The notes below the pieces were generated by a model. The model saw only the letters and a program-made list of their open reading frames with translations. It did no database searches and was not told where the DNA came from. DNA of 35,769 bases from contig FN649730.1 in the NCBI GenBank assembly GCA_000310025.1, positions 1,434,222-1,469,990 of the forward strand. The letters run 5' to 3'. How positions within the stretch are numbered: position 1 is the stretch's first letter; the number at the start of each line of letters is the position of its first letter. Below are positions 29,656-35,769 of this stretch, in pieces. Both the position numbers and the translations under genes were made by a program. Source of the DNA: Ectocarpus siliculosus. Taxonomy: Eukaryota; Sar; Phaeophyceae; Ectocarpales; Ectocarpaceae.

Positions 29656-32600
29656 CTAGGCGTGGTTGTGGGCTGCGGCGAACACGGTATCCAGGGGGCC
29701 CTTGACCAGATCTGCGTGGAGGTTGGTCGACGGTGTGTTGGCATCCGGGAAATATGTCAAAAATTTTCGTAAGGTTGTTTTATTGCCAAACAACAGGGAA
29801 ACCTCCTGTTGTCCGCCTGATGGTATTAGTCTTGTTCAGCATTTTCGCAACATTTACGCCAAAATATCGAGGTTTTGATGAGCGAAATATATACAAGTTG
29901 CCTCAGGACGTTTGGCCCCTACCGGGTTTTCGTCATTGACATGTACGACCCCTTACGTTTTGGATTCAAATCAAAGCAAAAAGTCGCAGGCAGTACTATC
30001 GTGCTGGTATTGTCATAGGGTGCCGAAACGCCACTGCGAAAACTTCGCCGGGAGCGTTTACTCACAGTCGTTCTGCGCCCCACGGATAGCAGCCATTCCC
30101 TGCATGATGGGGTGGCCGTTGGCGTCAAGAGTGGGGTTCTGCGTCTCGCCGAGGATACCCGTGGCGTCGGCACGCAGGTCAATGTGGTCGACGGAGAGGT
30201 TCATCTGCCAGGTGAGGTGATCCGGGATATCGAAGCTGTCCGTCGGGTCACGCGTGGCAAGCTGGTGCAGACGACCATGGCTGAGGCGGATCTTGCCCTT
30301 CGGGGTCAAGATTTGGAACGACGTGTGTTCCGAGTCGTGCTCGAGCAAACCAGCCGAGCCGTTTTCCGTTGCGCCCACAACGTACTCCGTGCACTCGGCC
30401 ATGTTCGTCGCGGTAGGGTCACCAAGGATCCAGTCGGACATCTCCTCCAGCTGCGAAACAGAGGAAAGCCTTCGGCCGCCGCGAGCGTACTCTTGTCTCT
30501 TGAGCTCCCAATATTGTTCAAACCCGAACGACCTGAAACGACCCACAAACGCGCCGTTGTTGTTAAGGGCGAGAGGTTACACCAGGGCTTTGATTTGAGC
30601 ATCCTGAACTAGGAGTGCTTCCATTCACCTGCAGCTCAGTCAGATGTTGTCGGCGGGTCAGAATTAGACTAGCGGTCGCAAATGACCTGCATGACCAATC
30701 TAGGTCATGAATAGCCTACCTGCAAGCACCAGGAAGGTTGACCGCAGATAGTGCCACATTGGGTCCGAGCTCGACCTCGCCAGGCGATAGCAGAGTTACT
30801 TCACCGTCGAGCTCCACGGTAAGAGCGCCGTCCGCCAGACAAGGTGCGACTTCCACGGGACAGGCACTGTCCAGGCTGTGGGGGTCCGTGACCGTGATGA
30901 CAATGGTGTGCTTCAATCCCGCATCGCCCATTGTCGTGATTCCCAGTCCGGTGATGTACGTGATCTCGGGCACGGATGGAACAGGGGACGTCACGCGCAT
31001 GTTGAGGTGGATGTGTGGCATGTCCGAGACGACCGCGTACCAGCCTTCGTCTTCCCCTGTGAAGTCGAACTTTTGGCCGCGGAAGCCCGTCATGTGAGGG
31101 TCACCTGGAAAATGAGAGAAGCAAAAAGCACGTTCTTGTATTCGCGGCACTCCGACACGCGACACGAACAAACACCGTGTGTTTCAGCAATCCCCAGCGG
31201 TTTCCTCGTCCGCTCAGTTGACAACAATCGAGTCCGCGACACGTTCTTGACCGGAACAGGTAACCCTGGAATGGATGCATCGGCTTCAAATCAATCTGCA
31301 TCATTCAGCGCGACCAGGGTGATCCTGCTGGCTGATCTGGTGCGATCATGGAAGGATTTTCTACAAAGATTGTGCATCGGATGGGTTCCTCACCGCAGGC
31401 GCCTGTGCCATCGATTGATACTTTGCAGGTGTTGTCCTCCTCACAACATACGTATCCATCAGCGCAGTCGTCATCACTCGCGCAAACTGTACGTGTCGGC
31501 ATCACACGTTAAATCCAAGAAGAGGGGAGGTCAGCGAGAGACAACGCAAAAAGAACGAAGAAACTGCGCCGGTAGACACCGGCGATAAATATCGCCGTTT
31601 TTTTTCTCTGCTGGTGCAAAAGATGGGGGAATTTGGGGCCAGTTCACGACCAAAGGCAAAATGGTGGATTTTTCCCAGCCAGCCAACAGCAATAGCCACA
31701 CCAAATCAAACAGAATACCCTAACGGTGGTGCGGAAGTCACGTCTCGAGGACCGACTCCTGCAATCCCTCAGGCCTGCAGGGGTACCGATCCGTCCAGAC
31801 GAAGGAAACAATACATTCACCATCCGAAAAACGACGCAATCCCGTGGGATACAGCGTGACTGACACTCGTCGTGTGAATCACTTCAATCATGGAAGCCTA
31901 TCAACAGCACCACGCACCGTAGCACGGCGAGTTGACGTCGAGGCAATTGTAGCCGCCAGTGCCGCAGGGATAGTCGCCCTGGGTGCAGCCGAGCGGAAGA
32001 CAAGAAAAGGACATATCATCGGGTTGAACACTCGCTTTGCAAAAGTCGAGGATGCCATGACTACGAGGTAGGCCTGTTGTTTATCGCGTGACAATCATCA
32101 CTAGGCCTTTTGAACATCGACGCAAAGCTCAACACACGCAAAACACCCTTCGACATGATCGACACTCGCGGTAGCCCTCACATCATCCACACAGTCGCAG
32201 GAGCAACAATCTCCCCCGTCATATTGGCAGTCCTCGTTATTGTTCTCTGCGAGCGAGTCAAGAAATGAGCGAACACGGCGGGTCGCATTGGCAGTTGGTG
32301 CATTGTCGTACATACTTATCATGTATACCCCTCCGCTTGTCACATAATAAGGTCGGTTGGCTCCAAAGCAAGCAACCAAACGGTCTACATGATAAACTTT
32401 GTTCACAGAGGGGATGATTGTTGGGGCTATCGCTTGGCCAAGCACCATGCACCTCACGTATCCCACTCTTTCACCACCCATCGTACATGCCGCCCCGCTA
32501 TCGCTACTATCGAGTGTGTCATGGGATCGCCCTGAGGGTCGCACGCCAAGCAATTTCGGCGTGGCGAGCAAGGAGTACAGTGGCGTGTCTTGGGACCCAA

Positions 32601-35600
32601 CCTGTAGAGCACCCTTACGTAACCAAAGCAATGTACTCCGGGGTATGACATGTTGTATACCCACACAGGTGCAGAACAAGGGAATGCTAAGAATCAGCCC
32701 TGCGAGCAAGAAAGGGGGAAGGCCCGCCACATCGAACCCTGTACATTGGTTCCTCGTTATTTTCAACCGGTATGTATGCACTCTCGTTGTACTTACTCCC
32801 TTGAAGACGGAGGGGGGTGGCGCTTCCAGTAGTAGAGGTACACAGAGGTTCACAGTACAATCCTCACCAGATATCAACAACAACCAATGTATGTACACAC
32901 TCCAAACATCCGCGGTGATGGGCTTGGATACACGGTAGGAGCGACACTTCAAAACGCTCCAAGGTACGGCCTACACATGAGCGTGGTCACCGCCTGCGCC
33001 GTCGCCAGGGATCATCAAGTTTCGCTGGCGAAAGCGTGTGTAGCTCACCTGCGTTACAGTTGCCGTCCGCCGCTAAGTTGGCGCTGGCTGAGCACTGGGG
33101 TTCACCTGCAAGCCCCAACGACGTGCGATCAGGGGGTTTCCGGGCGTACCGAGGAATATAGGGGATCGAGCCGCGAGAGGAATCCAGCAAACCCCGTCAG
33201 TGACAAGTATTTTGTTCGCCCTCTTACGTCCATATCATCAACAGGGAATAGTTTCGTCACGCTGAATTACTCACAATTGCAGTTCCATCACAACTCTTAG
33301 AGGAGCTCCATGTGGTACTCAAGAGAAGGAGAGAGACGTCTGCGCCCTAGGGAAATACAGCCAAGCCGACGAGCTAAACCACACCGAGACAAGAAGGAAC
33401 GCCCTACATAACCGTGCCACTTCGCAAGGACCCGAATCCTACAACGCGTGTACCCGAAGGGGTACCGGTCCCTTCCAGACGAAGGAATCACAAACATTCC
33501 CAGTTTATTGATGCGATGCAATCTCGTGGGATGCAGTACGACCCACACTTGTCTTGTGGATTTCTCCACTGTGGAGACCTCTCTACAGCGCACGCACCGT
33601 AGCATTCCGACATCATGTCGAGACAATCGTAGCCGCCAACGCCGCAGGTGACGTCGTCCCCCTGGGTCTGCATACAGTCGAACGAGAAGCAAGAGGAGGT
33701 GATGACAATGGTTTGAACACGCGATTTACGGACATCGACAATGCAACACTGGTTGTAGGATGCGAAATTGTGGTCACATTCTTGCCTTTAGTATCGTGAA
33801 TACACCACCCATCGACATCAACCACTCAACAATGGAAAAGGTCAACACGCGGGGGGTCATTTCTAACAACGACATTCGCGCTCGCGATAGCCCTCACCTC
33901 CTCGCAGTCGCACTGGCAACAATCCCCTCCATCAAACTCGCAATCCGCGATGTTGTTCTCTGCGAGCGAGTCAGTAACAGAACAGTCAGAAGCGGGTGGT
34001 CGCATCCGGACGCGATGCTCTACACTATGCTCCCCGCATGTCACATGGTCAGCTCCATTAGCTCCGAAAGAAACAACCGGGTCACCGGACAATATCGAGA
34101 GTGATGCAACGTTAACGGGGGTCACCTCGTTTACATTGCTGGGTAAGGAGACGTGCTCCATCTAGCCCTGAGTACTTTCAACGTATCGCCGTAACATCAC
34201 AGAAACTGGACGAAATGCTACACGTCTTCTCATAAAAGGGCATATTTCACCCTATTTAGAAGTGCACCTCCCTACCGTAGCATCACTCTCGACTGGGTTC
34301 TACGGGAGTATGCTTGCCCTGCGGCACACCACTACAGCCCATCGTGAGCGTCCCCACTGTCACTACCTCCCGGTGTGTGTGATGTAATCGACCGGAACAC
34401 TGTACGTGAAGCCCTTCGGACACGAATGAGTATAGGGACGTGCGACACAGCTTTAATGGCAGACCTCCGGAATGTGTTCGGGGGCCAACGTGGTAGAGGA
34501 AGCTTACAGGAAGCCGAAGTCATGATGCACACCCACACGATGCGGAACCAGTGTACGCTGAGCGCAGCACGTGTGCCGAACGGTCATGTTGAGAAGGATG
34601 CATGGTTACATGGGACATGCAGCGCGCAGTCTCAGCGACTTATGCACGAATTGAAGATTAGCGTGGTTACCCGCTGCGCCATCGGCAGGGTTCACCAAAC
34701 TTCTGCAGCAGGGAACACATGTCGATAACTCACCTGAGTCACACCAGCCGTTGGATATGCGGGTGGGCGAGGCACCGCACGAGGGATCACCTGCAAGCGT
34801 TAAGCCGAGTACGATCGGGGGGTTGCTTGGCTTACCGAACTCAAGCGGGTCGTGCCGCGAGACCCATCACAGAAAGCCCTAAGGTATCGAATATAGAAAC
34901 CATCCCCTCTCGACGCTGATCTGTCCCATCTCGTACGTGCATGTAAGCTGTCCCATACAACCTTGAATGCACGGCTCCATGACTCCGTCACACTTCGTGG
35001 AGTCTCTGACTGACGGTAGGTACTGCGGGCAAGAGAGAGACCGCTCTCGCCCGGCGAAGTGCAGGCCAACCAACACGCAAAGTCAGACCAAATCAAGAGA
35101 GACTACCCTCAAGCGCTTTGCATGTCGGGTCTCAAGCACCGAGGCCTACAAACGCTTTGAACAATGGCCGCCCAGGGGTACCGTTCCGTCCAGAGGGAGG
35201 CAAGACACAAATACCCGATGAGGTAATGCGACGAATCTCGTGGGATGCAGCGCGACCCATGTAAAACTGACTTCGTGGATTTCTTCGACAGTTGGGGCCA
35301 CTCTGGAGTTCTACCCACCGTAGCACGACGAGTTGACGTCGAGGCAATTGTAGCCGCTAGTGCCGCAGGGATAGCCGCCCTGGGTGCAGCCGAGCGGAAG
35401 ACCAGAAGAGGATATATCATCGGGTTGAACACTCGCTTTGCAAAAGTCGAGGATGCCATGGTGAGAATAGACTACGAGGTGGGCCTGTTGCTTATCGCGT
35501 GACAATCATCACTACAGTAGAACTTTGAACATCGACGCAAAGCTCAACACACGCAAAATACCCTTCGACATGATCGACACTCGCGGTAGCCCTCACATCA

Positions 35601-35661
35601 TACACACAGTCGCAGGAGCAACAATCTCCCCCGTCGTATTGGCAGTCCTCGTTATTGTTCT
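29656..35661 (-). CDS. Secreted LNR (Lin-12/Notch repeat) protein with GDPH/vWD-like C-terminus (5' end beyond right edge)
   Basis: Minus-strand exons: 35661-35597, 35379-35319, 34790-34734, 33959-33898, 33661-33598, 33105-33049, 32246-32182, 31978-31918, 31486-31394, 31104-30720, 30532-30066, 29711-29656. All phases match, giving 496 residues here. Each LNR is split by an intron: first half DPSCGASPTRISNGWCDS or EPQCSASANLAADGNCNA, second half ENN..DC.(Y/F)DGGDCC.CDC with the Ca-binding N/D residues. Each is followed by a Cys motif, G(D/G)..CG..GY(N/D)CLD..S.CY. Then come CASDDDCADGYVCC...NTCK (Cys-rich), GDPHMTGFRGQKFDFTGEDE, and a C-terminal region (FEQYWELKRQ, LGETQNPTLDANGHP). GDPH/FDFTG resembles the start of vWD and plant root-cap domains. 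Secretion is inferred from the Cys content. Ligand and partner are unknown. A further 48-nt exon (35009-34962, RDSTKCDGVMEPCIQ) also fits in phase. The signal peptide should lie right of the window. Confidence 0.85.
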
Positions 35662-35769
35662 CTGCGAGCGAGTCAAGAAACGAGCGAACATGGCGGTCTC
35701 TCGTTCATCACGCACTTCTTGTCGCGGGTGTCAAAAACATCCGTCGTGCAGCCGTTCAAGCATATTTCG
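31780..35769 (-). repeat. Tandem array of ~1.7-kb LNR gene units (about 2.4 copies)
   Basis: Equivalent landmarks recur at regular spacing. LNR second-half exons end at 32182, 33898 and 35597 (1716 and 1699 apart). Cys-motif exons end at 31918, 33598 and 35319 (1680 and 1721 apart). LNR first-half exons end at 33049 and 34734 (1685 apart). Intronic sequence is also shared, for example GTACCGnTCCnTCCAGA near 31782, 33461 and 35178, and GCGTGGTnACC near 32981 and 34661. The copies are clearly diverged, and units 1 and 3 resemble each other more than unit 2 does. The array is cut by the right edge. Confidence 0.85.
34962..35009 (-). CDS. Possible additional small exon of the LNR gene
   Basis: Between the unit-3 Cys-motif exon and the unit-2 LNR exon, a 48-nt stretch flanked by TCAG and GTTGTA starts and ends in phase 1, so it can be included or skipped without changing the frame. 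It encodes RDSTKCDGVMEPCIQ. A related string (TRDKKCVMNE) lies near the right edge at about 35700-35730. Only RNA evidence can show whether it is used. Confidence 0.35.

What the first reader, a model, noticed from the sequence alone, without database searches (positions are those of the whole stretch)
31780..35769. Tandem genomic duplication of a phase-compatible LNR module
Seen: two-exon LNRs plus a Cys-motif exon recur about every 1.7 kb, introns included. The exon-3-to-exon-1 borders are all phase 1, so each unit can be gained or lost in frame. Known: LNRs occur in Notch-type receptors and some secreted proteins. Inferred: an evolving extracellular recognition protein whose repeat number may vary between individuals, possibly with alternative exon use. 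This is my best candidate for an undescribed system in the window.
Basis: partly seen in the sequence, partly recalled or inferred. Interest (0 to 1): 0.8.

Follow-up and report, generated by a model that had tools for sequence, protein, structure and literature searches.

The report
Seaweed gene with tandem LNR modules
This stretch is most of a gene, in a genome that looks like a brown seaweed's, for a secreted cysteine-rich protein whose three-exon building block has been copied in tandem, introns included; it belongs to a large family of similar genes in the same genome, so the design is real but not a lone new system.

Summary
Observation confirmed and extended. On the minus strand, about every 1.7 kb, exons A|B (a split LNR) and C (Cys motif) recur. 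The gap-free stretch holds B1-C1, A2-B2-C2 and A3-B3-C3. B0-C0-A1 lie past a run of 1,952 N, and the first LNR exon and a signal-peptide-like exon 11-12 kb further. C-to-A borders are phase 1 (3 of 3, one outside the window). The joined model (16 exons, 580 aa, no stop) ends in a domain that Pfam does not recognise. Units alternate (0 like 2, 1 like 3), so a two-unit block was duplicated; intron divergence is mosaic. The nearest paralog has two units, by eye.

It is one gene of a family: the DGGDCC pattern occurs 156 times in this genome (3 in the reversed control), with 83 of the 100 listed sites in clusters, and the C-terminal exons have dozens of matches. Diversifying recognition is not supported: three duplicated sibling arrays are under purifying selection (omega 0.11-0.22), and recent unit copies here look neutral (about 0.86). 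LNR expansions are published for a copepod and noted in stramenopiles; my searches found no account of this exon cassette. Variation between individuals is untested.

The parts
35597..35661 (-). exon B1: second half of LNR 1 (ENNNEDCQYDGGDCCSCDCVYD), phase 1 in, 0 out; its exon A1 lies beyond the N run
35319..35379 (-). exon C1: Cys motif GGYPCGTSGYNCLDVNSSCY, phase 0 in, 1 out
34734..34790 (-). exon A2: first half of LNR 2 (GDPSCGASPTRISNGWCDS); 5' part nearer A1/A3, 3' part nearer A0
33898..33959 (-). exon B2
33598..33661 (-). exon C2 (two possible acceptors 6 nt apart, both in frame)
33049..33105 (-). exon A3
32182..32246 (-). exon B3
31918..31978 (-). exon C3 (last Cys motif, phase 1 out)
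31394..31486 (-). exon D: small Cys module VCASDDDCADGYVCCEEDNTC (weak WAP/granulin resemblance, below cut-off), phase 1-1
30720..31104 (-). exon E: first part of C-terminal domain, begins GDPHMTGFRGQKFDF; 65 matches in own genome (pieces of one gene count apart)
30058..30532 (-). exon F: second part of C-terminal domain, ends GILGETQNP...IRGAQNDCE and stop TAA 30058-30060, or is spliced after 30066 (ACT|GTGAGT, also present in the 4 nearest paralogs); end unresolved

Best explanation
The window holds 11 of 16 exons (the 3' four fifths of the coding sequence) of a gene for a secreted, disulfide-rich modular protein, probably of a brown alga: signal peptide, four modules of about 60 aa (an LNR with four of its six usual Cys, plus a six-Cys tail), a small Cys module and a family-specific C-terminal domain. 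Shown: anatomy, frame, phases, tandem two-unit duplication, mosaic divergence, a large same-genome family. Inferred: the LNRs bind calcium through the intact DGGD motif and act as rigid adhesive or spacing beads in the cell wall or matrix, held through the C-terminal domain. Also inferred: unit number changes by unequal crossing-over in the long homologous introns, tolerated because the A+B+C cassette is phase 1-1, while gene conversion keeps alternate units alike. Tandem growth therefore tunes length or avidity rather than creating new specificities.
For: No stop in a 16-exon joined model, all 15 junctions GT-AG with matching phases. Hydropathy 1.67 in the first residues, next highest 19-residue window 1.13. 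LNR by Pfam and by weak alignment to NOTCH3 LNRs (E 0.004-0.006), where the second and fourth Cys are absent here. Alternation: B0/B2 59 of 62, B1/B3 63 of 65, C0/C2 60 of 64, C1/C3 58 of 61, A1/A3 54 of 57, against 0.69-0.77 for the other B and C pairs. In the 0/2 pair, intron A-B has 99/667 mismatches against 21/727 in introns B-C and C-A, Fisher 3.5e-16. E and F against L003: omega 0.22 and 0.24; unit pairs of unlike type 0.27-0.64. Nearest paralog L003 has two units, by eye the same A|B intron, and the D-E-F tail. In sibling LNR arrays 31 of 34 DGGD exons begin in phase 1 by a nearest-AG rule.
Against: No transcript. The model crosses 1,952 N and an insertion of about 10.8 kb in the A0-B0 intron. 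Both edges of the N run differ from the expected intron, so the join of unit 0 and A1 to the rest is not proven. A0 and A2 are only 19 of 25 alike, barely above A0 with A1 or A3 (18 of 25). Recent unit copies evolve neutrally, which also fits relaxed constraint. Calcium binding, location and avidity were not tested. The E-exon fold was unusable (pLDDT 35.7).
Confidence: 0.68

Rival explanations
1. A fast-evolving recognition protein: unit number and sequence diversify under selection, as proposed for LRR-ROCO genes of brown algae.
For: Modular phase-compatible exons, recent duplication, unit number 4 against 2 in the nearest paralog; recent block pairs carry 11.5 non-synonymous against 3.5 synonymous changes, and units 1-3 alone give omega 2.03 on one synonymous change; exon-shuffled LRRs under diversifying selection are reported in brown algae (PMC11378527, passages).
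Against: The 11.5:3.5 ratio is what neutrality predicts (binomial P 0.53-1.0). Three sibling array pairs are constrained (omega 0.11-0.22). No individuals compared.
Confidence: 0.15
2. A decaying gene or assembly artefact: units relaxed after duplication, with unit 0 added by a wrong scaffold join of two haplotypes.
For: N run between A1 and B1 with unexpected flanks, large insertion in the A0-B0 intron, neutral recent pairs.
Against: B1C1 and B3C3 lie in one gap-free stretch 3.4 kb apart, so the duplication does not depend on the join. No stop or broken splice site in any exon of the model. No place other than this locus matches E above 83% identity, so no second allele of the 3' end was seen.
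Confidence: 0.12
3. A Notch-like signalling receptor whose LNRs guard a protease site.
For: LNRs in tandem, extracellular.
Against: No second hydrophobic segment in the model; PF00066 is the only Pfam family found at E up to 1.
Confidence: 0.03

Closest known systems
LNR (Lin-12/Notch repeat) domain, PF00066; LNRs of NOTCH3 and of pappalysins
   Same: DGxCD...NN...C..DGGDC core; Pfam matches, weak phmmer matches to NOTCH3 (E 0.004) and pappalysins (E 0.13)
   Different: Second and fourth of the six usual Cys are missing; each LNR is followed by a CCxCxC...CGxGGYxCLD...C tail; the LNR is split by a phase-1 intron; no Notch partner domains
LNR-domain gene burst of the copepod Oithona nana (PMC8301441, passages including part of the abstract)
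   Different: An animal; partner domains are proteases, lectins and others; the paper calls the amplification scenario undetermined, whereas here the exon cassette and its phases are visible
Notch-domain genes of stramenopiles: Ectocarpus (16 in gamete transcripts; PMC3879662, passage), Saprolegnia (15; PMC3681718, passages), Chaetoceros tenuissimus (more than in compared algae; PMC8613185, passage)
   Same: Same domain, same wide lineage, many genes
   Different: Those passages give numbers or relative abundance; they describe no exon-module structure or C-terminal domain
Exon-shuffled LRR-ROCO genes of brown algae (PMC11378527, passages; Zambounis 2012 known only from its citation there)
   Same: Repeat encoded by phase-symmetric exons, duplicated in tandem in brown algae
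   Different: LRR, one 72-bp exon in phase 2, GTPase partner; here LNR, three exons, phase 1-1, secreted

Membership tests
LNR domain (PF00066) | Score above Pfam's curated cut-off | tested here: met
   Whole protein 42.3 bits; single units 27.9, 23.1, 23.5, 19.0 against 21.2, so 3 of 4 pass alone; unit 3 joined to exon D gave no hit
LNR domain (PF00066) | Six Cys in three disulfides | tested here: not met
   Four Cys in the LNR core; second and fourth absent in the alignment to NOTCH3. The pairing C1-C5, C2-C4, C3-C6 is recalled, not from a call
LNR domain (PF00066) | Calcium-binding DGGD motif | tested here: met
   DGGDC present in 4 of 4 units; that it binds calcium is recalled for LNRs and not tested here
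Notch receptor | EGF repeats, heterodimerisation domain, membrane segment, ankyrin repeats (list recalled) | tested here: not met
   Only PF00066 found; no second hydrophobic segment
Exon-shuffled repeat genes of brown algae | Phase-symmetric repeat exons duplicated in tandem | tested here: met
   A+B+C is phase 1-1 in units 1-3; unit 0 enters in phase 0
Exon-shuffled repeat genes of brown algae | Diversifying selection on repeats | tested here: not met
   Recent block pairs omega 0.75 and 1.13, about 0.86 pooled; few sites, so weak power
Exon-shuffled repeat genes of brown algae | Splice variants with different repeat sets | not testable with these tools
   No RNA data held
von Willebrand D domain (C-terminal domain E/F) | Pfam match | tested here: not met
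   No Pfam family at E up to 1 for the E/F region of this gene or of 3 relatives; the GDPH resemblance is recalled only

The most novel reading that the evidence does not exclude
Brown algae carry a third exon-shuffled repertoire beside LRR-ROCO and NB-TPR, and an extracellular one: dozens of LNR-array genes, built from phase 1-1 cassettes with at least three intron layouts and more than one C-terminal partner, whose unit numbers turn over by unequal crossing-over and differ between individuals, serving adhesion or self/non-self recognition in the wall.
Probability: 0.22. Interest if true: 0.75.

Novelty: new variant of a known kind. Interest (0 to 1): 0.45.

Why it matters
Multicellularity arose separately in brown algae, and their wall and surface proteins are little known (recalled). 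A large family of secreted LNR-array genes that grow by whole-cassette duplication gives a ready place to ask how such proteins lengthen, and whether this feeds adhesion or recognition. It also shows the animal rule of phase-1 extracellular modules (recalled) at work in a distant lineage.

Tried and rejected
E and F as a von Willebrand D or root-cap domain: no Pfam match, no PDB match at E up to 1; the fold of exon E from one sequence was useless. I did not fold the LNR module, because a spliced protein is not a plain translation of the window.

First gene draft: the E-F junction was wrong and gave two stops; an acceptor further upstream mended the model, and the frame it gives is matched over its whole length by four paralogs.

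Diversifying selection: tested by NG86 on unit pairs and on three duplicated sibling arrays (a fourth pair, C9, gave no usable pair, and the cross comparison C11-C9 gave omega 0.26); not supported. In the sibling test only modules caught by one pattern were compared: C27 3, C11 4, C17 1.

First LNR exon A0 (25 nt): accepted because 50459-50555 matches 34657-34751 at 83% and its frame joins the signal-peptide exon. A2 as a crossover chimera: its 5' flank matches A1/A3 (115/185, 102/174) better than A0 (59/143), its 3' part matches A0 (92/124) better than A1/A3 (74/125, 79/125); equally, A0 may have been re-capped. Left open.

I saw no clear target-site duplication at the ends of the 10.8-kb insertion, by eye. 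A C24 array tail that looked like a discoidin domain to me has no Pfam match. An extra exon after F, at about 29656-29750, was considered but I saw no acceptor.

Literature: nine searches combined brown algae, Ectocarpus, stramenopile or oomycete with Notch, LNR, LIN-12, exon shuffling or tandem duplication. No listing or passage described these cassettes. PMC8307928 and PMC12629598, searched for terms only, hold no mention of Notch. The library holds open-licence papers only; Le Bail (etoile) and Zambounis 2012 were not held.

Full report
What was checked. The window lies at G000:C5:1434222-1469990 in a 189-Mb genome of 492 contigs. EsV-1-7 Cys motifs are hugely expanded there (880 candidates; 150 were scored and all 150 pass the cut-off). 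From recalled knowledge that points to a brown alga; the species is not known.

Anatomy. The gene reads on the minus strand. Window coordinates are extended past 35769 by L001 (35770-45769) and L002 (45770-55769); add 1434221 for contig C5. The bases 35770-37721 are N, a gap or a withheld stretch. Exons in order: signal peptide 50941-50852, A0 50562-50538, B0 39020-38959, C0 38722-38659, A1 38143-38087, [N], B1 35661-35597, C1 35379-35319, A2 34790-34734, B2 33959-33898, C2 33661-33598, A3 33105-33049, B3 32246-32182, C3 31978-31918, D 31486-31394, E 31104-30720, F 30532 to about 30058. So the gap-free window stretch has two complete cassettes and one that lacks A. All 15 junctions are GT-AG and in phase; the joined protein is 580 aa without a stop, with 54 Cys. 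The signal peptide was judged by eye and hydropathy, with no predictor. The end is unsettled: a stop follows exon F's last codons here and in L003, but a donor-like GTGAGT stands at that place in this gene and in L003; L004-L006 also have GTGAGT there.

The unit. A+B encode an LNR, C a Cys tail: GEPQCSASANLAADGNCNA|ENNNEDCQYDGGDCCSCDCVDD|GDYPCGTGGYNCLDVNSPCY. Phases are A-B 1 and B-C 0 (4 of 4) and C-A 1 (3 of 3); A0 enters in phase 0. By Pfam 3 of 4 units pass alone and the fourth is just below; joined to exon D, unit 3 gave no hit. Against NOTCH3 the second and fourth Cys are missing, which in the recalled pairing are partners. Exon A (57 nt) or B+C (126 nt) could be skipped in frame; B or C alone could not (lengths).

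How it grew. Like units alternate: 0 with 2 and 1 with 3 (B and C identities 0.94-0.97 within like pairs, 0.69-0.77 between; A1/A3 0.95; A0/A2 only 0.76 over 25 nt). So a two-unit block was duplicated. In the 0/2 pair the A-B intron differs at 99 of 667 sites, B-C at 3 of 236 and C-A at 18 of 491 (first against the other two, Fisher 3.5e-16); the part of the next A-B intron that aligns differs at 21 of 175. I read this as gene conversion over the B-to-A stretch; separate exchanges would also fit. Exon A2 and its flanks are mosaic between A0 and A1/A3 types. The first A-B intron holds an insertion of about 10.8 kb (39698 and 50459 match the adjoining 34641 and 34657).

Selection. NG86 on whole units: unlike pairs 0.27, 0.30, 0.61 and 0.64; like pairs 0-2 0.43 and 1-3 2.03, the last on one synonymous change. 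Recent blocks: B0C0A1/B2C2A3 Sd 2.5, Nd 7.5 (0.75); B1C1/B3C3 Sd 1, Nd 4 (1.13); about 0.86 pooled by me. In the printed translations no Cys differs between like units, but with so few changes that is not significant by my estimate. Sibling duplicates: C27 0.11, C11 0.22, C17 0.15; summed Sd 15, Nd 9, far from neutral (P 2e-5), and different from the window's pairs at P 0.02-0.05. E and F are constrained against the four nearest paralogs (0.18-0.30).

The family. E gives 65 and F 66 matches in the genome at E up to 0.01 (this locus included, pieces of one gene count apart). Of the nearest four, L003 (83% in E) has, by eye, two LNR units with the same A|B intron but another B|C intron and C fused to A; in L004-L006 I saw no LNR within the fetched 10 kb but another N-terminal Cys region, then D-E-F. 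The motif DGGDCC, as a degenerate DNA pattern, occurs 156 times against 3 in the reversed control. Only 100 places were listed; 83 of them fall in 21 clusters of two or more and 69 in 14 clusters of three or more, with mean spacings from 0.4 to 5.6 kb. Arrays I read in part: C24 with nine such sites, C39, C27, C11, C9, C10, C17. By a nearest-AG rule, 31 of 34 DGGD exons begin in phase 1 (before the script stopped). So phase-compatible LNR cassettes are a common design here, with at least three intron layouts (by eye).

What is known. LNR expansion is published for Oithona nana, including LNR-like forms without two Cys (PMC8301441); Notch-domain genes are counted or noted for Ectocarpus gametes (PMC3879662), Saprolegnia (PMC3681718) and a diatom (PMC8613185). 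Exon-shuffled LRRs are published for brown algae (PMC11378527). I saw passages of these papers, not whole texts. My nine searches found no account of LNR cassettes like these.

Verdict. It is a new variant of a known kind: an LNR-array gene in a large family. Shown: structure, duplication history, constraint on the C-terminal exons and older units. Inferred: secretion to the wall, calcium-stiffened modules, length or avidity as the trait. Not shown: expression, unit-number polymorphism, recognition.

Noticed in passing
G000 contig C39, 148-365 kb: Five clusters of DGGDCC sites (7, 2, 8, 6 and 6) on a 475-kb contig before the listing was cut off: a super-cluster of LNR-array genes.
   Followed up: partly
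L007 and L008 near 3526, L010 near 3557, L009 near 2845 (sense orientation): Relatives with KCDYTTQGCLCTC or similar where DGGD would stand: a degenerate LNR that may have lost its calcium site.
   Followed up: no
L004, L005, L006 upstream of exon D: Close paralogs in E/F carry another N-terminal Cys region (ACECGGPT...HNGGDGYC in L004; no Pfam family over its cut-off) where LNRs would stand, as if N-terminal modules were swapped onto one tail.
   Followed up: partly
39698-50459 in extended coordinates (L001/L002): About 10.8 kb inserted in the first A-B intron; holds repeats shared with 52-55 kb.
   Followed up: partly
35697-35769 and L001 1953-2142: Both edges of the 1,952-N run differ from the expected intron; a DNA search found the window-side 73 nt nowhere else in the genome.
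   Followed up: partly
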